64,000 nt of DNA from Apoderus coryli (taxonomy: Eukaryota > Arthropoda > Insecta > Coleoptera > Attelabidae), in contig OU452204.1 in assembly GCA_911728435.2 (NCBI GenBank), positions 20,806,430 to 20,870,429 on the forward strand, read 5' to 3'. A model generated the notes under the pieces. The model was not told where the DNA came from, did no database searches, and saw only the letters and a list, made by a program, of their open reading frames with translations. Below are positions 4,930-43,250 of this stretch, piece after piece (positions within the stretch are counted from its first letter, which is position 1; every line of letters begins with the position of its first letter). A program made the translations under genes and the position numbers.

Positions 4930-7200
4930 AAAACTAGAGTTTGTCTGTCAAACAGTATACTTTCCATCCCATCCTGGATTTGGTGATGATATCCGACAAA
5001 AAACTTGTACACAAAATAATTCATGAAGCACCGTTGGGTCTGAGTGACCATGTTGTTATTAAACTTTATGTTCAGTTGTTGGGAACACGAGGGTTATACA
5101 AAAGCGTAACTTCTGGAAGGCTGATTATGTATCAATAAATGATTTTTTGTCCCGCAGTTTGCAAGATACTGATGACATCGAAATATGTCTCGGAGCTATT
5201 CAAGAGGCTATCCAGAAGTACGTACCAGTCTGTCCCCGCAGGATAAACTCGCAGAAGCCGTGGATCAACGGAAATATTTTCGCAGAAATACAAAGGAAGA
5301 GGAGACTCTGGCTCAAGTACAGACGGTTGAAAACGGACGCGAACTATTTGTTGTATAGGCAGCAAAACAATAAACTAAAGACAATGATATCGGAGGCTAG
5401 ATGTCGGTATGAAAGTGAAATGGCGGCGAGTAGCAATAAGAAATTCTATGCTTATATTAAACGGTCACTAAATTCTAACGTTTCTAGTTTCTCTCTGAAA
5501 GCAAAAACTACGGGTGAACCAATAACTAGACCAATTGACATGGCCAATGCATTCGCTAACCAGTTCAGGAGTGTTTTTACCGACGACTCGAGGGACAATT
5601 TATCTGTATTACCCCAGTCTACCAGAAACAGGCAGTCATTAACAACCGTTAATTTTATAACCGCCGATATAAAGGAGGCAGTGGCGGGTTTGAAGCAAGA
5701 CTCGAGTCCTGGCCCGGACGAAATTCCTCCGATGTTTCTTCAGAGATGCACAAAAATGCATCAACATGGGCCCTCTACCGGAGGAATGGTTGTCTGCTGT
5801 CGTGATACCTATATTTAAAAAGGGTGACAAGTTCGCTGCAGAAAATTATCGACCTATTAGTTTGACCTGCGCACTTTGTAAATGCATGGAGAAAGTCATT
5901 AGCAGAAATATGACTTCATTTCTAGTTGAATCAAATATTGTTCCCAATGAACAACATGGGTTTATGCCCAAGAGGTCGGTGGAGTCGAATCTTCTGGAAT
6001 GCCTCAATGTGTGGACCAGCCATAATGATGTTGGTCAGCCTACGGATGTGTTGTATCTGGATTTTGAGAAAGCATTCGACACAGTGCCATTTGCTCGTTT
6101 GTTGCTAAAATTGGAGCATTGCGGCGTGCGGGGGGCACTCCTGAGGTGGATTGAGATGTTTCTTACAAAAAGAATTTTCCAAGTTAGAGCGAATGGTGCA
6201 TTATCCGCTAAATTGCCGGTCTTGAGTGGTGTCCCGCAGGGGTCTGTATTGGGGCCATTGCTTTTTCTGGCATATATATCAGACTTAACAAGAACCATCA
6301 CGTCAAACATGAGCTTCTTTGCTGATGGCACCAAATTGTTTTGTAACCCACTGCGAGACGATAATGAATTCCAGATCGACATTGATGGGTTAGTGTCCTG
6401 GTCGGGGGTTTGGTTGATGAACTTGAATTTGGAGAAGTGCCAGGTACTACACATCGGAGCTAATAATCCCAGGACTCCATATTTCATCAATGGAAATGCC
6501 GTTAAATCTGTAAATCAGCAGAAGGATCTTGGTGTCATAGTAACAGCGGATTTGAAGTGGGAGGCCCATATTTCCGCCACAGTGAAGAAAGCAAATAGAC
6601 TGTGGTATCTGATACAGAGAGCTTTCAAATCGAGATCAAACTCTCTAATATTGCAATTGTATAAATCGTATGTCAGACCACTATTGGAATATGCCAACAG
6701 CGTTTGGTCCCCCTACTTCATTAAGGACATAGAGGCATTGGAAAGGGTTCAGAGGAGATTCACTAAGCTACCTCATGCACTTATACCATATGAGGAGCGA
6801 TTGAGGCTTTTAAATTTGACATGTCTTTATGATCGACGACAACGAGGCGATCTAATTCAAACATACAAGATACTTAGTGCCTACTACTCGGTGAATCTCG
6901 ATGTATTTCATCCTGCTAGAAATCCTAATCTGCGTGGCAATCGTAAAAAAACTTGACAAGGAGAGATGTGCTAGACTTCCTCGGAAGAATTCTATAACAA
7001 ACAGAGTTGTATATGCATGGAATTCATTACCTGAAGAGGTGATAATGGCGCAAACGTTTGACAGCTTTAAGAACAGGCTGGACAATTTCATGGAGGACCA
7101 TGGCGATCACTCGCTATAGAAGATTAGTGAGGATGACATCAATATTTCAAAAACCTCAAATTAGGAACTGAGCAACAGTTTCATCGGTTTTACCGTTTAC
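4930..7200 (+). mobile_element. CR1/L2-like LINE copy, 5' truncated, inactive RT
   Basis: Starts inside the AP-endonuclease domain (LDLVMISD and LSDHVVI at about 4975-5060). A frameshift near 5095 leads to a linker and the N-terminal RT region (5147-5755, [10 protein letters not shown]). About 20 codons are then missing before GPLPEEW, and the RT core runs in 5766-6956: [50 protein letters not shown]. The catalytic box is FADG (about 6319) instead of FADD, which removes an essential aspartate. A last frameshift near 6950 precedes the C-terminal part ending at 7119. It is the same family as the copy at 14794. It lies between the TM9SF3 and BCR genes. Confidence 0.9.
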
Positions 7201-13900: not shown

Positions 13901-16900
13901 ATTCTCACTAGGCTCAAATTATTGACGAAACCGATATCCCACAAGACATGATTCTTATGGAATCCGACACTGATGTTGCCTCAGAAGATGATCTGCCTCT
14001 TTCAGTTTTGCAGACCCAATTACAAACCTCGTCTCAGTCAACCGATAGACGTGATTGATCAAAACTCGTATATCCCGAGAAACCAGTTGTTTTTGTTGCC
14101 GATTCTGGAATTACTGATATTGTGAAGAATATTGACACTCCAAAGCCAGGAAAACTTTTTCAGCTCTTTTTCACCGATGAAATCATTGAGTCCATTGTTT
14201 TTTCAACAAATTTGTACAGCCAACAAACTGCCACTGCGCCTAAAGTTACAAACACAGAGGAAATGAAAACTTTTTTGGCTATAAATTTGTCTTCCCAGCT
14301 TCAGGGATCACTGGACTAGTGCTCCAGATTTTTATGATTCCTATATTTCCTCTTTGATGTCTGTAAAACACTTTACATGTGAAACCTGGCTACGATAAGC
14401 TTTACAAGCTTAAATTCGTTATCGGATAATTTTGAAAAATGTATGCTTCCCACCAAGGATCTTGCAATTGACGAGTCTATGATCAAATTTAAAGGAAGGA
14501 GCAGCATAAAGCAATATTTTGCAAAAAAGCCAATGAAAAGCGGTTACAAAGTATGGGTATTGCCAAAGGTTTCAAATTTATACTGGCAAATCCGAGGATA
14601 CCGAGAAAAGTTTAGGAGCAATAGTAAAGAATTTAATGGATGGATTGGAAAATAAACATCACATGGTCTATTTGACAACTTCTTTAACAGTGTTCTGTTA
14701 CTTGAAGATCTGAAAAAAAAATAATATTCATGCTTGTGGTACAGTGAACGCCAACACAAAGCTGCTCCCGATTTTCAAAAGTGACAGAAAAATACGAAGA
14801 TCGTTGAACTCAAATGTTGCAACCTTTTCACTGAGAAGAAACGTTACCAACGAAATGATAACAAGTTCAATGGAAATCGCTGATACGTTCGCTGATCAGT
14901 TTAGCAGTGTTTTCACCAGGGTAGCGACCGGTAACATGCCGACACTACCGCAAAACGCCTGGAACCCACAATCAATGACAACTGTCAATTTTACAAACAA
15001 CGACGTGAGAGAGGCTATCACAGTACTGAAGAGTGACTCCAGCCCAGGTCCGGACGAGATCCCACCAGTTTTCCTCCAGAGATGCATTGAACCACTGTTG
15101 CAACCTTTAACAAGAGCAATGCAGAATTGTTTTAACACCGGAACCCTGCCAGATGGGTGGTCGAATGCAATAGTCATACCAATTTATAAGAAGGGGAACA
15201 AATACAATGCTGAAAATTATAGACCAATTAGTTTGACTTGGGCCCTGTGCAAATGCGTGGAGAAAATTATTACGAAGGCACTGACTCCATTTTTACTGCA
15301 GTCAAACGTTATTCCTAACCAACAACATGGATTTATGCCGGGAAGATCAGTGGAGTCAAATCTGCTGGAATGTCTTAACTTGTGGACCAAACAGAACGAT
15401 GATGCTCAGCCTACTGATGTGGTGTACCTGGACTTTGAGAAGGCATTTGATAAGGTGCCATCCGCTCGTCTGCTATTGAAGCTGGAACATTATGGTATTC
15501 GCGGAGAACTCCTGCGATGGATTGAGGGTTTCGTTAGAGGAAAAAGTTTCCAGGTTAGGGCGAATGGTTCGATTTCCCGTAGACTGCCGGTCCACAGCGG
15601 GGTGCCTCAGGGTTCGCTGTTGGGCCCGCGGTTGTTCTTGGTTTACATATCGAATATAAATGCAAATACAAGTTTCTTTGCTGATGACTCTAAGCTGTTT
15701 TGTGATCCGCTGCAGAGCGCTGAGGTGTTCCAGACCGATCTCGACAGAGTGATGACTTGGTCATCAACTTGGCTGATGAGTTTGAATTTGGACATATGTA
15801 TAGTTCTCCATTTGGGACCAAATAACCCCGAAATATCCTACACCCTTGGTGGACACGAATTAAGACCAACTCTCCAGCAAAAGGATCTCGGCGTGATTAT
15901 TACCAATGATTTAAAATGGGAAATCCATGTCTCGGCGGTAGTGAAGAAGGCCAACAAATTGTGGTATTTGATCCAGAAAGCATTTAGATCAAGGTCCAAT
16001 GACATGGTTCTGAAGCTGTACAAGTCGTTTGTCAGGCCGAGCCTGGAATATGCCAGTAGTGTATGGTCTCCTTATTTTGTTAAGGATATTGAGGCTTTGG
16101 AGAGAGTTCAGAGAAGATTTACCAAGCTTTCACAAGCGCTGTGCCACCTGCCATATGAAGATCGGCTAAAAGCTTTGACCTTAACAACGCTTCAAGAAAG
16201 GCGTCGTCGTGGCGACTTGATACAGCCGTATAAGGTTCTTAGCGGACATTACACAATAAACTTGGATCTCTTTCATCTGAATAGAAATCCGAGCCTACGT
16301 TTTAACAGCAAGAAATTGTGCAAAGAAAGATGCGCCAAGCTCGCTCGAAGAAACTTTCTATCAAATAGAGTGGTATATGCGTGGAATGATATGTCGGAGG
16401 AGGTTGTATCAGCGCCAACAGTGAATAGTTTTAAGAACAGACTGGACATTACGCTTAAAGATCGGGGCAGCTGCATGATCCACTACTCGTTATAGTAAAT
16501 CGTCGCGTTTTTGTACAGAGCCGAGTTTTATTTTTTGGCGAATGATTTGACTGAAGTTTCACGAAAAGACAAAACAAACCTATCGGTGTCAGATGCGGTA
16601 AGAACCACGGGGGACCATTTGAGTCGGTAAATCTCAGACATACTTGTTTTCATTCCATGTACCATGCAGTTTCCATATCTCAGATAATCAACACTTACCG
16701 GAAACATAGATTTTGTTTGAATCATATTAAATTGATCCAAAAACTTTTGCGTTAGATGTAGGGCTTCCTCCAAGGCATGCCTGTCAGGATGTTTTACACC
16801 CACACACCGTAGAATATCGTGCAAAACTAAAGCGTTCTTTTGAACTCGTGCTACCTAAAAATATTTATTTAATTAAAGAAAATTAAGAGCGAGTCGATAT

Positions 16901-25100: not shown

Positions 25101-27326
25101 CTTTGGGTCATCAGCATGATAGTTCAGAGTTTCTCGGATATTTACTGGATACGTTACACGAGCAGGAGAAGAATGTGTCTAAACAAAGTATCGAAGGTTC
25201 GTAAAAATACATCGTCACCATTCTTCCACGTTTTACTTATATTTTTCTGTTTGTTGCTATTATTTAGATGAGGCCTGTGCTCTGGAATCGATCACACCCA
25301 CCGTCGTCCAACAAGCGTTCGGCGGTAAAAGTGTGACAATGTCTTGTTGTGCCGAATGCGGCACCAAAAGTGAACGTACAGATGGTTTCCGTGACTTGCA
25401 ACTGTCATTTCCGAATATCAGCGACAATCAATCGGTCCAGAGTTTGTTGGATTACTATTTGCAACCGGAGAAGTTGTGCGGTGAGAATCAGTACCATTGT
25501 GATATGTGTCAGCGCCTGACAGATGGGGAGAGATTAACGAAAATTGTGGAAACACCGCCCAGATTATTGTTAACTTTGAAACATTTCCGGTAAGCGTTCT
25601 TTTATTTCAATCTGACAACTTTGACGTAAAAATGCACGCGGGCAGTGTTGCCAACATTTGCAAATGAAATTTCCCATATAAACGTTCAAAATGTCCCCTT
25701 TTTCTCTAATAAATAAAAATATCGGTCAACATTTCTCGCGAATATTATCATTTAAGTAAAATTTTCCATTTTCCTTTTAGTATTGCGAATTTCCCACGAT
25801 TTCACATCACTAGGTGTCAGTTTTGTTCCTACAAATGTCTAATTTGACGCTGTCACTAAACAGGAGAGTTGGCAAAGTTACGTATTGTATCGATATGATA
25901 TTTTGACAATATGAATTCTCCTGTTCATCACTGAAGGTAAAATTTCTTCCCTCCAACTAAAAAGATGAAATTGAAACCGAAATGGAGCATATTATCTTCC
26001 CCAGATTTCCCTAAAGCTTTCGAGTGCTTAATTTGTTGGTCATTTGATTCAATATTTTCTGTGTGCTTTCAGTTTGTCCAGGAACCTTCAAACTTCTTTA
26101 CAATGTAATTGTTTTCCTCTAATTTTTAAGTCGTTTTCAAGGGTGGGAAAAAGTGTAGCATATCCAATTATAGACCAGTTAATTGATAATGGGTGCAATT
26201 CCTAAGGTTTTTGAGACGTTGATAACAGGGTTTTATTTCTGGTACGTTTGCCGATCTGAATTTTCTGGAATTTGTGGAGTCTCATCGGATACAGTGGAGG
26301 GGAATTCACACCGTGTACACAGGCTTCTCTAACGCGTTTGACAGAATTAACCATAGTGTTTTGATGCGTTAGGATTTTCAGTTGAAGTATGACTATATTT
26401 TAATGGAGCTTGGCTTACAAACATTGGACGAGCGGAGAATCTTAAGAGATATTCATCTCCGATATAAAATAATGTTCAACATAATGTGTTCTAGTTTTTT
26501 GATAGCAGAATTGGATTTCATATACCTCAAAGATCATTGAGGGTTAACGCACTCTTTGATGAAGTAGAACAAATTACGGAATCAACGCTTTTATCTCTAG
26601 CGTATCGAGATTTGCTAATGCCTATCCTGAAATAAATCTTAAAACATCTTTGGTTGGATGATGGTTGTACGACCTCCCTTGTGCTTTGTTTTTAAATATT
26701 ATCCAAAACAATTTTGTGTGTAAACTGATGGTGTCTCATATTTGTTTCCGAACTCTCATGTTCTCACCGGTATTGCTGATAAACTGTCAGTAAAACTTCA
26801 TTTCCAAAGATCAAATGTTCACAGGTATGACGCCGCAACACACCAACGTACGAAACTTCTTCAACGAGTAAATCTCGACGAACAGATTGATATAGATGGC
26901 ATCAAGTTCTACCTGTACGCAGCCGTAGTGCATTGCGGCAGCAGCGTAGACTCCGGCCATTATTACACATTCGCCAAAGACGATTCTGGTTGGTACAAGT
27001 TCAATGACAGTTCCGTGATCAAAACGAATCTTGACGAACTATGTCGACTCAAACCACCCGAAACACCGTACATATTGTTTTACGGTAAAAGTGATTATAC
27101 AGAGCCAGAAACGTTGCCGAGTACGCTACTAAGTGCTGAATTGCAGTTGGCGCTTAGTCGAGACCATTCAGAGTTTGAAAGTGAACGGAAACGGACTCCA
27201 TTGAAAGTGTATGGTGGTGGGAGAAGGAGTCACGGTAACGATGAACCACCACCTCCACCTCCGCCAGGACCATTTGGCGGTGGTGGGTTTGGTGGGTCGG
27301 CTACGGGAAATATGTGTGTATGCTAG
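22179..27326 (+). CDS. USP38: USP35/USP38-type ubiquitin-specific protease
   Basis: Cysteine protease that removes ubiquitin from target proteins. Eight exons: 22179-22328, 22386-22590, 22644-22789, 22945-23175, 24620-24794, 24879-25196, 25268-25589 and 26825-27326, all GT-AG, total 2049 nt, an exact frame of 682 residues. Residues 1-300 form the helical N-terminal region typical of USP35/38. The USP catalytic domain starts at about 304 with GLYNLGNTCYMNSVLQALF (Cys314), followed by SLGHQHDSSEFLGYLLD, paired CxxC zinc ligands (CCAECG and CDMC), HCGSSVDSGHYYTFA (His561) and WYKFNDSSV (Asp577), so the triad is complete. The tail has a Pro run then Gly-rich sequence, as in vertebrate USP38, but ends in CVC. 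The protein is shorter than human USP38 (about 1040). Assignment to USP38 rather than USP35 is uncertain. Two introns are swollen by repeats. Confidence 0.93.
23330..24560. repeat. tandemly duplicated T-rich repeat in USP intron
   Basis: Two copies about 460 bp apart share long blocks: ACAGGATKCGAYAAACATCC at 23395 and 23849, then CAGAGCCTGTATCAAGGCAT, GAGTCTCAACGTTCTGCA, GTTAAGCAGGACAAT and CGAACGTAGGAGGCTTAAT, followed by TTC-rich sequence like that at 1-900. On the minus strand the tail again reads as fragments rich in Glu, Lys and Arg. This is the intron between the 23175 donor and the 24620 acceptor. It is probably a decayed repetitive gene or retroelement ORF, duplicated in tandem. Confidence 0.6.
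26130..26710 (+). pseudogene. decayed non-LTR RT fragment in USP intron
   Basis: Broken reverse-transcriptase sequence: SNYRPVN at about 26165 (motif NYRPIS), then YTGFSNAFDRINHSVLM at about 26318-26370, the block usually seen as YTDFSKAFDR(I/V)NH. The intervening frames are full of stops. It resembles the Jockey-like elements at 46, 54 and 59.8 kb. It lies in the last USP intron, in gene orientation, and does not disturb the exons. Confidence 0.6.
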
Positions 27327-28727
27327 TGGTAGAACAGGTTAATAATTTAAATGGTATTTTTATTGGTACACAATACTAATTATTATTGATATATGGAACT
27401 GAGGAGTTTGTAATGTATGATTGTGTTTAAGATTTTGTAAAATATTTGTTTTCGAATTTAAATTTATGTACTAGTATTTCTTGAGGTTTTAAAAAATATT
27501 TTGGTTACAAAAACTGTTGTTTTTTTTTTAATTTCCGATATACCCCTTCTAAAATACTAGGTTTCCAGTGCAGGGGTTTAAAAAATGTTAGTGTTGGAGA
27601 GCCCGAGTTAGAATTACGGTAGGTGCATATTTTACCTTATTTTTTAATTTTTGTTTCGTAGAAGATGTCTTAATTTTGACTCATGACGTTTGACATTCGG
27701 GCACAGTATAATAAATAAGACTTTCCGGTTGCGAGCCGTCCTGCGCATATCGTCGCGCATGCCGCCATTATGGGTTAAAACGTCACAATAATCGCATTGA
27801 CGTAGATAGATACCGTTCACTCCTGTGTTCAATATATAGTTCATTGTCGGCGTGTACGAGATAAATAAATATTGTGTTTTGAATCTAATTCTGTGTTTTT
27901 GGTATAGTGTTCGTGGGAATTAAAAGGATTTTATTTTTATTAACGTATCTTATGATTAATACAATGAAAAATCAGGGAGGACATGTGTGCTGCAAAATGT
28001 TGTCCCAATAAGCGGTACACTTGCGCTAAACAAATGTCAATTATTGACAATTGACATTTGTCATTTACCATTAGTTGCTAAAAATGTTGAAAACAACTTA
28101 AAAATTTTCTTAAAATTTCTTGAAAATCAATAATGTAAAGTGTCAGGTTGGATTTATAATTTAATTCCAAATTTAGGTGTGGAATTTTCTTACTGAATAC
28201 CACGCGAGCATAAATTATTCCCGGAAATAATTTAAGCTCTTGTGAAAAAATCACAGTTCGTAACAATATTTCGTAAACCAGTTAAATAAATAGCAACAAC
28301 ATATAAAATACCAAAATAACTTTTATTTAAGACGAAATTCTCGGTCCATACAGTTTCTTTTGGAGTTAAAACTACACTTGCTAACTAACACTTAACTAAA
28401 CAATAATAAAATAAAAATAAATACTCTAACTTGCTATAATCTACGTAATAGGTATTATTTTATCATTATTATTTGACTTAAAAATAAAAACATGTATATA
28501 AAACATATCCTTCTAATACTTTGTAATGTTTCAATAGTTCATTAAAAATAATTAAAGATCACAGCAAATATTGCAACTGTGACCTTTTAATACATCTTTA
28601 ATTAATTTATTTATTTAAGAATGCACATAATAATCAATGTTTTGAGATCGACCATCTTTTTTGTCTAATAGTAAAAAGTGCACATAACCCATTTTATTTC
28701 TATAATATGTACAGGCCATGCAAAAGA
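27327..28727. other. USP 3' UTR and spacer
   Basis: No gene. The start is the 3' UTR of the USP gene. 'ATTGACAATTGACATTTGTC' hairpin-like sequence lies near 28040, and AT-rich DNA follows up to the transposon at 28731. Short open frames (27644-27844 and 28078-28266, minus) show no recognisable motif. Confidence 0.4.
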
Positions 28728-28730
28728 TAA

Positions 28731-31142
28731 CACAGGCCAACACACATTTTGGTGCCTGCGATTTTTTAACTGTTCCTGAGTAATTTTTGGATGCAGAATG
28801 TAAAAAGGTTCTCAGATTTTGTCTATCAGATCTAGTTTTTGAGATTTTTTAAAAAATTGTGTATATAATTTACGTTATAACTGTTATAATATATAATATT
28901 ACTATTGACAGTTAAAAAAAACAAAGACACATGGATTTAAGTATTTATTGCAAAAACTTAATTTACATAATTACATTAGTCACTAATCACATAAAAATTT
29001 TCTTTTATACGATTTTCTAGAATGGAGTTTACTAGGGCAGTCTCGCTGAAGGCTCCAGCAGTAGTCCGCCATCATGTGGCTATCCCATCGTCCTTGATAA
29101 CGATCTTCCATAGTTTTAATATCCTGGTGGAATCTTTCCCCCTGTTCTTCACTACAATCACCTAAGTTTTCTGGAAAACGATCTAGGTGGCTGTGGAGGT
29201 AGTGAACTTTTATACTCATGTTACAGCCGAGAATATTAAAATTTGAAAGCATAGTTTCCACTAATTCTACGTAATTGTCTGCTTTATGATTGCCAAGAAA
29301 ATTTTGTACTACTTGAACAAATGAACTCCAAGCGTTAGATTCAGTCTCGTTCATTGATGTGGTGAATTGTGGATCTTTAACAAGTTGCCTTATTTGAGGA
29401 CCATCAAATATACCAGCTTTTAGTTTTTCCGTGCTAATGCCAGGAAATTTACGTGACAAATACCCAAAACAATTTCCATCTCGATTTAAGGCCTTCACAA
29501 ATTGCTTCATTAGGCCTAGCTTGATATGCAAGGGCGGAAGTAAGATTTTTTCTCTTGAAACCAAAGGTTCGTTGATCACGTTTTGTATTCCTTGAATCAT
29601 GACATCTCTTGAAGGCCAATTTTTGTTAACCCAGTGCTCATTTTTAGCTCTGCTGTCCCAAAGGCACAAAAAACAAGGATATTTTGTATAACCACTCTGC
29701 TGTCCAAGGAGGAAGTTAATCATTTTTAAATCAACACAAATTGACCACTGATGTTCTTCGTATTTAATTTTTCTCAAAACTAATGCTATTGTTTCATATT
29801 CTTCCTTCATGGTAGTAGAATGACCAATAGGAATTGAGCCATATTTGTTACCGTTATGTAAAAGAACACATTTTAAACTACGTTTTGAACTGTCAATAAA
29901 AAGGCGCCAATCATCTGGAGTGTATTCAGGCAAACCCATTTTTTCTAAGAGCCCTTTTATATTGTTACAGAATACCAAGTCATTTTCCTGAGTGAAAAAA
30001 GGCAGCAGATCCTTATCTCTTTTACGATAAAATGTAATATTAGTACCTCGACAAAGTAGATTTTTTTCTTTTAATCTGGATGCAAGTAATTCAGCGGATT
30101 CCTTTGAGAGATTCAGGTCTCTTATAAGATCGTTTAGTTCTTCTTGATTGAAACACTGCGGAGTTGCTAAATCTGCTTCAAAATCGCTGTCGTTTTCTGA
30201 TTGAATTCTTTTAACTTCGTCAGACGTTGATGTTTCTGTATCATCTTCTGTCAGTTTGGGTAGACTGCTGAATGATGGAACGGGTATTTCTTCCGAATGC
30301 ACTACAGGCCTTCTTGCAGAATCTAGATCAGGATATGTCCATTTGTGTCTATTGTTTCTATTTATGCCTTTAATATTAACGAGACAAAAATAGCAGTCGT
30401 CATGATGGTTCCGCGGTTCTCTCCAAACCATTGGTACACCAAACTTTAGGCACTTCCTCTTTCCAGTTGTCCACTGTCGCAAATGTTCAACACATGTTTT
30501 ACATATGAAATGTGGGGCCCAAGATTTATCTTGATCTCCTAAATGAACGCCAAAATAGGCAAGATAAGCTCTTTTCACAAAGTCAGAAATCCTTTTTCTG
30601 CTCTCTTTCAAAGTGTATTCACCACACACATAACAAAAAACATCGGGATGATTTACACAGGTACGTCTGCTTGTGGATGCCATTGTTTCAGTTTAGTGTC
30701 TTGATACTACAAAACGACCAAAATTTACACAAAATGATAGCACAACTTTACTTGGGAAAACTCAGTAATATACTAAATCAAGTACAGCCAAGCAGGTATA
30801 GAAGGATCGGGTCATAGGCAATTACAGGTATAAAAGTAAGTAAGAGCATTGTATTGAGTAGTTCCTAGTATAGGAACATTGGGTCAGGGACAATTCCAGG
30901 TATCCATTTGGCTAATTAGATTCTGGGAAATTCCTATTTTGACGATTAAGTACATATTTATCTCTTTATTTGTTGTCCTTTATCAGAAAAAAATATATCA
31001 TTTAACCTGTAACGTGTATCTCAAAAACTAGAGCTGATAGAAAAAATCTGGTGGCATTTTTGGAATCAGCACATTAAAAACATCTAAAATCAGATGTTAG
31101 ATTTCTGGCACCAAATTTTTTTTTTCATTTTGTTGGCCTGTG
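28731..31142 (-). mobile_element. complete 2.4-kb DNA transposon of unassigned superfamily
   Basis: Both ends begin CACAGGCCAACA in inverted orientation (28731 and 31142). Further inside, the arms share TTTGGTGCC (28749; complement near 31112) and a 30-bp block AGATTTTKTCTATCAG...CTAGTTTTTGAGAT (about 28814-28845; complement about 31018-31050). TAA flanks both sides (28728-28730 and 31143-31145), consistent with a 3-bp target duplication. The only gene inside is the intact 566-codon ORF on the minus strand. A second ACAGGCCATG lies just outside the left end (28711). Within the element, GGTATAGAAGGATCGGGTCA (about 30796) and a diverged copy (about 30868) repeat with a 70-bp period upstream of the ORF. 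A complete, apparently young or selected element. Confidence 0.85.
28983..30683 (-). CDS. Cys-rich protein of unnamed widespread family, candidate transposase
   Basis: A 566-residue intronless ORF with no disruption. I recognise the family as one found in many copies in insects and other animals as 'uncharacterized protein', but I know of no named domain. Visible features: N-terminal zinc-binding-like pairs C17xxC20 and C61xxC64 (spacing resembles a ZAD-type finger), a further C97xxC100, an acidic Ser/Thr-rich linker (about 145-175), and a conserved core from about 225. The core has hydrophobic strands ending in aspartates, LFID (D264) and ICVD (D318), a C337xxC340 pair, LLPPLHIKLGLMK, LHSHLDRFPENLG and SEEQGERFHQD (E512/E513 or E516). 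D264, D318 and one of these glutamates could form an RNase-H-fold DDE triad. Its position between terminal inverted repeats supports a transposase role. That role is inference. Confidence 0.85.
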   Translation of the reverse strand: MASTSRRTCVNHPDVFCYVCGEYTLKESRKRISDFVKRAYLAYFGVHLGDQDKSWAPHFICKTCVEHLRQWTTGKRKCLKFGVPMVWREPRNHHDDCYFCLVNIKGINRNNRHKWTYPDLDSARRPVVHSEEIPVPSFSSLPKLTEDDTETSTSDEVKRIQSENDSDFEADLATPQCFNQEELNDLIRDLNLSKESAELLASRLKEKNLLCRGTNITFYRKRDKDLLPFFTQENDLVFCNNIKGLLEKMGLPEYTPDDWRLFIDSSKRSLKCVLLHNGNKYGSIPIGHSTTMKEEYETIALVLRKIKYEEHQWSICVDLKMINFLLGQQSGYTKYPCFLCLWDSRAKNEHWVNKNWPSRDVMIQGIQNVINEPLVSREKILLPPLHIKLGLMKQFVKALNRDGNCFGYLSRKFPGISTEKLKAGIFDGPQIRQLVKDPQFTTSMNETESNAWSSFVQVVQNFLGNHKADNYVELVETMLSNFNILGCNMSIKVHYLHSHLDRFPENLGDCSEEQGERFHQDIKTMEDRYQGRWDSHMMADYCWSLQRDCPSKLHSRKSYKRKFLCD

Positions 31143-31145
31143 TAA

Positions 31146-32130
31146 TATTTATTGATTAAAATAAGCATACGTCGCACCAACGCTGATAACAAAATGCGTA
31201 TCTCGCACATACCTTAACCATACAAAGAGTACATCTGACCAGGGTAACTATTTGGCGGCCATTTTAAACTTTAATATTATGTAAAACATGAGTAAAATAG
31301 GTTACGAAGTACCCCGAGACAGCAGTTGTTGATAACGTATTAAGGTTCAAAATGGAGGCGCATCTATCTCTTTTTATGACCCGCGCGAATTGTCGATGAA
31401 CAGTATGGTTAAAGTATGTGGTATCTCCACAATGTCAGTCAGCTATAATAATATCCCTAGGTCATTGATAACCAACGTAACAATTTTGGTAACAGTCCGA
31501 TCTAGATGGCATTATATTAACTACACATTTCGATATCATTTCGTAATTGACCAAAAGTTGATAGTGGTTATAAGGCAGTAAGGAGTGCAACCTACTCTAA
31601 AATCGACGACGTTTCGCGGCTTTACTTCCGCTATTTCAAGATTCTTCATACATGAATGATACTGATCAAAGCGCATTGTTTTCAAATCACCAGTAAGAGC
31701 TGCTGTGCCACCGAGCTGGAAAAGACGAAAATAAATCCGCGAAATGCATGGTATTTTTTAAATTATGTTTTGTACTTCTTCAACTATTTAATCCTTGTTG
31801 ACCACCTACTGTAAAAACAATGTGTTTATTTTTGAATTGGGAACACGAAATACGTAACAATAAAATATTGTGGTCATTCAACGATGTTTAGTTGTAAACA
31901 ATTTGATTTTTGTCCCAGATAGTCTAGGCTAGATTATCTCGAACTTAAATGTTTTTTCAAGAGCCGTTGATGATTTGAGCATGTTTGACGAAACACATTG
32001 TAGAAAACTGATAAAAGGCATCAATCATATCGGAGAGTGGGCATCACTGATTTAATGTAACGTAAGTGATTTTAGTCCTACAAAACAACTAATTAACAAT
32101 TGCTTTGAACATCTTTGTTGAAGCTTCAAC
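31146..32130. other. spacer without recognised gene
   Basis: No gene. At about 31600-31640 the minus strand contains a GCGG...CCGC hairpin followed by GAAAC, which I examined as a possible hammerhead and did not accept. The rest is AT-rich sequence. Confidence 0.35.
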
Positions 32131-34139: not shown

Positions 34140-35410
34140 TTCAATTCTGACTTTTGTCAGAATATGTAGAAAAATTCAAACTTTTTCAACTCTTACTTTT
34201 TTTTTTGTAAAATTCCGAGGTTTTTACAGAATTATTACTATTTGCAGAATTTTGTAAAAAATGTCTGAATTTTTATCATTCATAATTTACAGAATTCTGT
34301 AAAAAACTCCAAATTTTTGATAATTCTGACTTTTCTTTGAAGATTTCTGTAAAATAACTCGTATTTTTTTTCATTCTGACTTTTGTCAGAATTATGTAGA
34401 AAAATTCAATTCTTACTTGTTTTGTAAAATTCCGAGTTTTTTACAGAATTATTACTATTTGCAGAATTCTGTAAAAAACTCCAAATTTTTTATCATGCTG
34501 ACTTTTTTTGAAGATTTCTGTAAAATAACTCGCAATTTTTTTTTCATTCTGACTTTTGTCAGAATTCTGTAGAAAAACTTAAACTTTTTCAATTCTCACT
34601 TTTTTTTTGTAAAATTCCGAGTTTTTTACTATTCTGACTTTTTTTTGCAGAATTCTGTAAAAAAAAGTCTGAATTTTTATCATTCATCATTTGCAGAATT
34701 CTGTACATTAACTCGCAATTTTTTTTCATCCTGAACTTTGTCAGAATTCTGTAGAGAAGCTCAAACTTTTTCAATTCTCACTTTTTTTTTTGTAAAATTT
34801 CGAGTTTTTTACTATTCTGACTTTTTTTTGCAGAATTCTGTAAAAAAAGTCTGAATTTTTATCATTCATCATTTGCAGAATTCTGTACATTAACTCGAAA
34901 TTTTTTTTCATCCTGAACTTTGTCAGAATTCTGTAGAGAAGGTCAAACTTTTTCAATTCTCACTTTTTTTTGTAAAATTCCGATTTTTTTTATAGAATTA
35001 TTCTGTAAAACAGAATTATTACTATTCTGATTTTTTTTGCAGAAATCTGTAAAAAAAATGAATTGTTTATCATTTGAAGTTTTTTGCAGAATTCTGTAGA
35101 AAAACTCAAAAATTTTCAGTTCTGACTTTTTTTTGTAAAATTCCGAGTTTTTTACAGAATTATTATGTAAAACACAATTATTACTATTCTGACTTATTTT
35201 GCAGAATTCTGTAAAATAACTCAACATTTTTGAATTATGATTTTTTTATTAAATTAAGAGTTTTTTATAACTCATTACTAGTACTACTCTGACTTTTTTT
35301 GCAGATTGCTGTAAAGAAAAACTCTTAATTTTTTTGCATTCTGACTCTTTTTTGCAAAATTTCGAGTTTTTTTACAAAATTATTAAAGGAGATTCTTGCG
35401 AAAAAAAAAA
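34140..35410. repeat. minisatellite built on CAGAATTCTG
   Basis: Degenerate tandem array of units containing (T)GCAGAATTCTGTA or TCAGAATTCTGTAG, separated by T runs and TTCTGACTTTTTTT. The clearest long period is 182 bp: the units starting near 34640 and near 34822 are nearly identical over their length. The short motif is itself a palindrome around GAATTC. Long minus-strand open frames in it (34589-34774, 34771-34956, 34943-35227) are repeat translations (YRILQ, NSDFF) and not genes. Confidence 0.85.
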
Positions 35411-41724: not shown

Positions 41725-43250
41725 ATGTTTTTTGGTCCAGTGTCAGCAGAGGACGTTGCAAGAGTCCTATCTAAATTCCCTAATAAAAAATCTAAGGGTA
41801 TAGACAGTATTCCAATAAAGGTATTAAAGGAATCTGCTGACGTGTTCTGTCCCATAATAGCGGAGTTGTCAAGTATGTCTGTAACTGAAGAGGTCCGTTA
41901 TTATCCCATTACATAAAAAGGGTGACCAGAAAGCCATCGCAAATTATAGGCCAATAGTTTTAATAAGCACTGTGTCGAAGGTGATGGAGAAACTTGTGGC
42001 CGAGAGAATTTTTGAATTTTTAAGCCAGTGTGATGTGTTAAGCGGTTGTCAGCACGGATTTAGACAAGGTTTTTCCACTGAAACCTGCACCGTCGAATTT
42101 GTTCAACAGGTTCATGATCTGATTGATAACGGATCCCATGTAGTGGCTCTTTTATTCGATTTGTCCAGCGCATTTGACGTTGTTGATAGAGACTTTCTAT
42201 GCCAAAAATTAGAACAAGTTGGCATACGTGGACCGATCAATCAGTGGATACATTCTTATTTGAAGGACCGAAAAATCGCAGTTAAAATTGAATCTGTTGT
42301 ATCAGACTTCTTAAATGTTGATCTGGGCACTCCTCAGGGAAGTATACTGGGCCCATTGGTATTTTTACTTTATATTAACGATTTTCCTGCAAATATCACA
42401 CACGGTTTTCAGTACATGTATGCTGACGACACCACTCTTTTATTATCTGACAGGGATCCTGAAATTCTAAAACATAAGATAAATGTCACGCTCGATGATT
42501 TTCAAATGTGGTGTCGGAGTAACAGGCTGATGATCAACTTTGACAAAACAGTTGCTATACACTTTAATAAGTTCAGAACATTGGATCTCAACATAAACTT
42601 TGATCATATCCATCTTCCTCTATCAGATTCTGCTAAACTGCTAGGAGTTTTTGTTGATCCGGATTTCAGCTGGGTAACGCATATAGACCACCTTTGTAAA
42701 AAATTTAATACGTCTTTATACATTATTAATTCGCTGAAGACTTGCATGAATGTGCATGTCTTACTTTCAATATATTATGCATTGGTCTATTCAGCAATTG
42801 CGTATGGTATAGTGGTCTGGGGCAGGTCTAGTATGATTGACAGAGTTTTTATACTACAAAAACGAGCAGTGCGTTGCATTTTTAATATTCCTTTTAGGGG
42901 TACTTGTAGGGAGGCTTTTAAACAAAATCGTTTGCTCACAGTCCCATCTATTTACCTATATAAAACACTCTGTCATATTTACAAAAATAAAGATGGCGCG
43001 CGTACGTGTGGAGACAACCACGAGTATTCCACTAGGGGAAGGGACCGATTGTGCTTGCCTCGTCCCAAACACGAATTTTACAAAAAGTCACCAAAATACG
43101 CGGGCTACCAATGTTATAATCTCCTGCCCGAGGACGTTAAGGGTTGCCTAACTGAGACACAATTTAAAAGAAAATTAAAGCTGTATTTGATTGATAACGT
43201 GTTCTACAGCTTTCAGGAGTTTGTTGATACTAATAGACGGTAGTTTTTTT
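41725..43250 (+). mobile_element. Jockey/CR1-like LINE RT, nearly intact RT domain
   Basis: The linker-RT start is at 41725-41890 (AEDVARVLSKFPNKKSKGID), then a 1-bp shift into HKKGDQKAIANYRPIVLIST and the 423-codon frame 41972-43243. RT motifs are all present: GCQHGFRQGFSTETC, LLFDLSSAFDVVDRDFL, GTPQGSILGPLVFLLYINDF and YADDTTLL (about 42420). The C-terminal region ends at 43243. There is no endonuclease or ORF1 upstream. It sits between the two inverted hammerhead-bearing repeats, in the 3' direction of the SINHCAF gene, perhaps in that gene's unplaced last intron. Confidence 0.88.

What the first reader, a model, noticed from the sequence alone, without database searches (positions are those of the whole stretch)
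28731..31142. Complete DNA transposon encoding an unnamed Cys-rich candidate transposase
Seen: 12-bp identical terminal inverted repeats (CACAGGCCAACA), further matched subterminal blocks (TTTGGTGCC; about 30 bp around TCTATCAG...CTAGTTTTTGAGA), TAA on both flanks, and one intact 566-codon intronless ORF. Known: this protein family is common and multi-copy in animals but is normally annotated only as uncharacterized. Inference: it is the transposase of a DNA-transposon superfamily not among those I can name. D264, D318 and one of E512/E513/E516 are the candidate catalytic triad, with N-terminal CxxC pairs as DNA-binding zinc sites. A TAA duplication recalls PIF/Harbinger-type 3-bp sites, but the protein does not.
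Basis: partly seen in the sequence, partly recalled or inferred. Interest (0 to 1): 0.88.

Follow-up and report, generated by a model that had tools for sequence, protein, structure and literature searches.

The report
Young Chapaev3 DNA transposon in weevil
This is an intact, recently multiplied cut-and-paste DNA transposon of the known Chapaev3 group in a beetle genome; its enzyme is predicted to fold like RAG1, the enzyme that cuts antibody genes, so it is a clean example of a known kind rather than a new superfamily.

Summary
The anatomy is as described: 2412 bp, 12-bp terminal inverted repeats, subterminal inverted blocks, TAA on both sides, one intact 566-aa frame. It is a transposon: the same 428-Mb genome holds 420 left and 413 right ends. 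Of 50 complete copies compared, 44 have identical TWA duplications, and all 44 sit in A-TWA-T. Two clean empty sites, and one with a single base change, were found.

It is not an unnamed superfamily. The CAC...GTG ends, TWA duplication between A and T, C(2)C, LH and H(4)H motifs, DDE residues, size and single exon match published Chapaev3 transposons (PMC4079192; CMC group, a clade of the Transib superfamily in PMC4411706). No named Chapaev3 sequence was available for a direct alignment.

Possibly new: the N-terminal zinc region resembles the ZAD domain of insect transcription factors. Verdict: new member of a known kind.

The parts
28731..31142 (-). complete Chapaev3 element, 2412 bp (transposase gene on the minus strand)
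28728..28730 (.). left copy of the target-site duplication TAA (preceded by A)
31143..31145 (.). right copy of the target-site duplication TAA (followed by T)
28731..28742 (+). left terminal inverted repeat CACAGGCCAACA
31131..31142 (-). right terminal inverted repeat
28748..28756 (+). left subterminal block TTTGGTGCC
31107..31115 (-). right subterminal block TTTGGTGCC (inverted)
28813..28845 (+). left 33-bp subterminal block, candidate transposase-binding site
   Evidence: 31/33 match to the right block
31018..31050 (-). right 33-bp subterminal block (inverted)
28983..30683 (-). transposase gene, 566 codons plus stop, single exon
30453..30650 (-). residues 12-77, ZAD-like zinc domain (C17, C20, C61, C64)
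29019..30161 (-). residues 175-555, RAG1/Transib-like catalytic core
29892..29894 (-). codon of D264, first catalytic Asp (inferred)
   Evidence: 98 of 98
29730..29732 (-). codon of D318, second catalytic Asp (inferred)
   Evidence: 98 of 98
29664..29675 (-). C337-x2-C340, the C(2)C motif
   Evidence: 98 of 98 each
29526..29531 (-). L385-H386, the LH motif
   Evidence: 98 of 98 each
29187..29204 (-). H494-x4-H499, the H(4)H motif
   Evidence: 97 of 98 and 98 of 98
29145..29147 (-). codon of E513, catalytic Glu (inferred)
   Evidence: 98 of 98

Best explanation
The feature is a complete, autonomous, recently active Chapaev3 transposon (CMC group; a clade of the Transib superfamily in PMC4411706) in a weevil genome. 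Its 566-aa DDE transposase recognises the CACAG... ends and probably the inverted subterminal blocks, cuts the element out at the CAC ends and inserts it with a 3-bp stagger at ATWAT, which duplicates TWA. Shown here: borders, TWA duplication, ATWAT target, empty sites, copy number, intact gene, invariant DDE and zinc-type motifs, predicted RAG1/Transib-like fold. Inferred from relatives: a nick 5' of CAC followed by a hairpin on the flanking DNA as in RAG1 and Transib; zinc held by C337, C340, H494 and H499; the ZAD-like N-terminus as a dimerisation or DNA-binding module; activity today.
Confidence: 0.95

Rival explanations
1. It is a PIF/Harbinger element with a diverged transposase: the TWA duplication would reflect Harbinger-type target choice.
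For: TWA duplication in 44 of 50 copies.
Against: No Harbinger-type DDE family among Pfam hits at E<=1 for the query or E<=0.1 for 79 members; only one ORF above 101 aa, so no second Myb-like gene; fold comparison ranks RAG1 and Transib first; C(2)C, LH and H(4)H motifs.
Confidence: 0.01
2. It is a separate, still unnamed lineage next to Chapaev3 inside the CMC/Transib clade that happens to share the TWA target.
For: No direct alignment to a named Chapaev3 protein was possible; the clade holds further lineages with similar motifs and CA..TG ends (PMC12730594, passages).
Against: A-TWA-T in 44 of 44, H(4)H and LH motifs, size and single exon fit Chapaev3 point by point.
Confidence: 0.04
3. It is a multi-copy host gene family or segmental duplication and not a transposon.
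For: Many identical copies of one ORF.
Against: Identity stops at the same two ends with unrelated flanks and TWA duplications; empty sites exist.
Confidence: 0.001

Closest known systems
Chapaev3 transposons (Garfield, Merrow, Conan; PMC4079192)
   Same: CAC...GTG ends, TWA duplication between A and T, C(2)C, LH, H(4)H and DDE; Garfield_BM 2289 bp and 556 aa; found in distant animals
   Different: A family in a weevil; in the listed sample nearly all copies are full length (89 of 97 at 2405-2420 bp), while the paper reports MITEs for Garfield and Conan. Identity to the named families could not be computed.
Transib, RAG1 and ProtoRAG/RAGL
   Same: Predicted catalytic-core fold; C-x2-C and H-x4-H with the same internal spacing as mouse RAG1 C727/C730 and H937/H942, and LH as L794/H795; CAC ends; CACAG also starts the RSS heptamer (recalled)
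   Different: 3-bp TWA instead of 5-bp duplication (5 bp recalled); no sequence similarity detected; no second gene
PIF/Harbinger
   Same: TWA duplication (recalled for Harbinger)
   Different: Other transposase and no second gene
ZAD (zf-AD) domain of insect C2H2 transcription factors
   Same: C-x2-C...C-x2-C spacing and predicted fold, 68 columns at 2.4 A
   Different: Here it is the N-terminus of a transposase and is followed by further conserved H93, C97, C100 and H129

Membership tests
Chapaev3 | 5'-CAC...GTG-3' termini (PMC4079192) | tested here: met
   CACAGGCCAACA...TGTTGGCCTGTG
Chapaev3 | 3-bp TWA target-site duplication | tested here: met
   44 of 50 copies identical TWA; empty sites
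Chapaev3 | A on the 5' side and T on the 3' side of the duplication | tested here: met
   44 of 44 with identical duplication, 49 of 50 of all
Chapaev3 | C(2)C, LH and H(4)H motifs with DDE | tested here: met
   C337/C340, L385/H386, H494/H499, D264/D318/E513, each in 97 or 98 of 98 proteins
Chapaev3 | N-terminal Chapa zinc domain (PMC4411706) | tested here: inconclusive
   Cys/His-rich conserved N-terminus; RAG1 importin-binding model PF12560 hit by 2 of 79 members, best E 0.011; no Chapa profile at hand
Chapaev3 | transposase clusters with Repbase Chapaev3 proteins | not testable with these tools
   Repbase and the paper's supplements were not available
Transib superfamily in the wide sense (PMC4411706) | RAG1-like catalytic core | tested here: met
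Transib in the strict sense | 5-bp target-site duplication (recalled) | tested here: not met
   3 bp
PIF/Harbinger | Harbinger-type DDE transposase domain in Pfam | tested here: not met
   absent at E<=1 for the query and at E<=0.1 for 79 members
PIF/Harbinger | second, Myb/SANT-like gene (recalled) | tested here: not met
   two ORFs of 100 aa or more overlap 28000-32000: the 566-aa one and a 101-aa one on the other strand; the latter was not searched for a Myb domain

The most novel reading that the evidence does not exclude
Probability: 0.35. Interest if true: 0.6.

Novelty: new member of a known kind. Interest (0 to 1): 0.33.

Why it matters
The family gives an intact, very young and highly copied Chapaev3 element with defined ends and a confident model, a practical starting point for testing in vitro how a RAG1-like enzyme outside the RAG/Transib branch cuts and joins DNA, in particular whether it makes flanking hairpins and why it uses a 3-bp instead of a 5-bp stagger. 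Identifying it also names a protein family that databases carry only as 'uncharacterized' or 'hypothetical' (2283 relatives at E<=0.001; of the 120 listed no row has a functional name). The ZAD resemblance, if it holds, would connect an insect transcription-factor domain with transposases.

Tried and rejected
Viral and prokaryote collections: no relative in viral contigs or genome contigs. BFVD fold search: no match at E<=0.001. PHROGs and NCBIfam: nothing useful. PF12940 (RAG1) in the own genome: no match, and none in the 14 control genomes either, so it shows nothing. Recalled name Cc8L18.2 (a bracovirus gene) as a lead: no paper holds it. The paper of Yuan and Wessler 2011 is not held; it is known here only as cited by others. 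PMC4202319 turned out to hold only a reference to Chapaev. Empty-site candidates set aside as unclear: L004 vs L058, L071 vs L008, L035 vs window, and the tandem-repeat matches of L030. L026 vs L022 also spans the junction but was not inspected letter by letter.

Rows dropped before counts: L023 (no left end within 3 mismatches) and repeats of one place (L064 and L066 repeat L035 and L037; others among L031-L060); the 26-bp pattern loci L031-L060 seldom hold both ends. L001-L030 were brought in because their protein is 100% identical, so identity figures are biased towards young copies; in the 18 distinct places, chosen by their left end, 15 keep the 566-aa frame and 5 have the identical protein.

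Paper searches that gave no prior report of a ZAD-Chapaev or ZAD-RAG1 link: and the passages; a report elsewhere is not excluded. One search (Chapaev, AlphaFold, RAG1) gave one paper, PMC12730594, whose passages report no Chapaev3 model.

Full report
The object. The window lies in a 428-Mb assembly of 129 contigs. Its mitochondrial contig (C129) encodes an ND2 protein 88% identical, over 94% of the query, to that of Apoderus jekelii, with 60% or less for the other 119 listed proteins, so the host is a beetle close to Apoderus (Attelabidae). The ORF is 566 codons without introns, on the minus strand.

It is a transposon. A 26-base left end with up to 2 mismatches occurs 420 times and the right end 413 times in the assembly, the reversed patterns 0 times. 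Of the first 100 listed left ends, 97 pair with a listed right end; 76 of the 97 are exactly 2412 bp, 89 are 2405-2420 bp, two are 1384 bp and one spans 5057 bp. The 1384-bp copies are the element joined from 1-270 and 1298-2412, i.e. internal deletions. In 50 distinct complete copies, 44 have identical 3-bp duplications, 27 TAA and 17 TTA; all 44 have A before and T after, and 49 of all 50 have these neighbours. In the window identical TWA at this span is found at 0.14% of positions and A-TWA-T at 0.016%. Paralogous empty sites: L026 against L040 and L075 against L049 carry ATAAT once, cleanly; L014 against L006 carries it once with one base changed.

It is young. The 40 copies of exactly 2412 bp differ on average by 2.77 positions (0.115%), at most 7; nine other copies are identical to the window's over the whole 2412 bp. 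At least 77 places encode the identical protein (which scored 77 of 491 candidates). 45 of 50 copies keep the 566-aa frame; because 29 of the 50 were brought in as 100% protein matches, the less biased figure is 15 of 18 (one search set). With a rate of a few 1e-9 per site and generation (recalled from Drosophila) this is of the order of some hundred thousand generations; this is an estimate only.

Name. PMC4079192 (abstract and passages) gives for Chapaev3: CAC/GTG ends, TWA duplications between A and T confirmed by empty sites, C(2)C, LH and H(4)H with DDE, Garfield_BM 2289 bp and 556 aa, most others single-exon, and repeated horizontal transfer among animals and into a bracovirus. PMC4411706 (passages) places Chapaev3 as a clade of the Transib superfamily with an N-terminal Chapa zinc domain. 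PMC12730594 (passages) treats Chapaev3 as a sublineage of Chapaev in a CMCT clade with RAG1. The element meets every one of these features that could be tested. PMC12220107 and PMC3630058 (passages) show the group under the names CMC-Chapaev-3 and Chapaev3 in Hydra and a blowfly.

Spread. The worm lizard protein (Rhineura) is 77% identical to a Hydra one (426 of 551) and 70% to the weevil's, against host phylogeny; this fits the published horizontal transfer but is not a test of it here.

How it works. By relation to RAG1 and Transib: the transposase pairs the two ends, nicks next to CAC, makes a double-strand break with a flanking hairpin, and the freed 3' ends attack ATWAT with a 3-bp stagger, giving TWA duplications. 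The end result (3-bp TWA) is shown; nick, hairpin and pairing are inferred. The inverted 33-bp blocks are retained in the 1384-bp derivatives with proper duplications, which agrees with a role as binding sites but does not prove it.

Noticed in passing
L005, L018, L070, L028, L068, L071 (flanks): 6 of 50 copies lack identical duplications; three differ only in the middle W (TAA/TTA or TTA/TAA), more than expected for copies this young. Exchange between copies or joining of ends from two copies could explain it.
   Followed up: no
G000 nuclear contigs: COX1 gives 92 further matches outside the mitochondrial contig C129, on many contigs: a nuclear genome rich in mitochondrial insertions (several matches may belong to one insertion).
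   Followed up: no
window 26724-27326: End of a ubiquitin carboxyl-terminal hydrolase gene (UCH, E 6.6e-13); the transposon sits about 1.4 kb downstream of it.
   Followed up: partly
window 5694-6956, 14714-16495, 41885-43243: Reverse transcriptase frames of LINE-type elements (RVT_1).
   Followed up: partly
window 34405-35216: Diverged tandem array, periods 162-182 and about 47 bp; related repeats flank the copy in L030.
   Followed up: no
L035 and L037 (1384 bp): Two identical internally deleted copies at different places with TTA duplications, i.e. moved in trans.
   Followed up: partly
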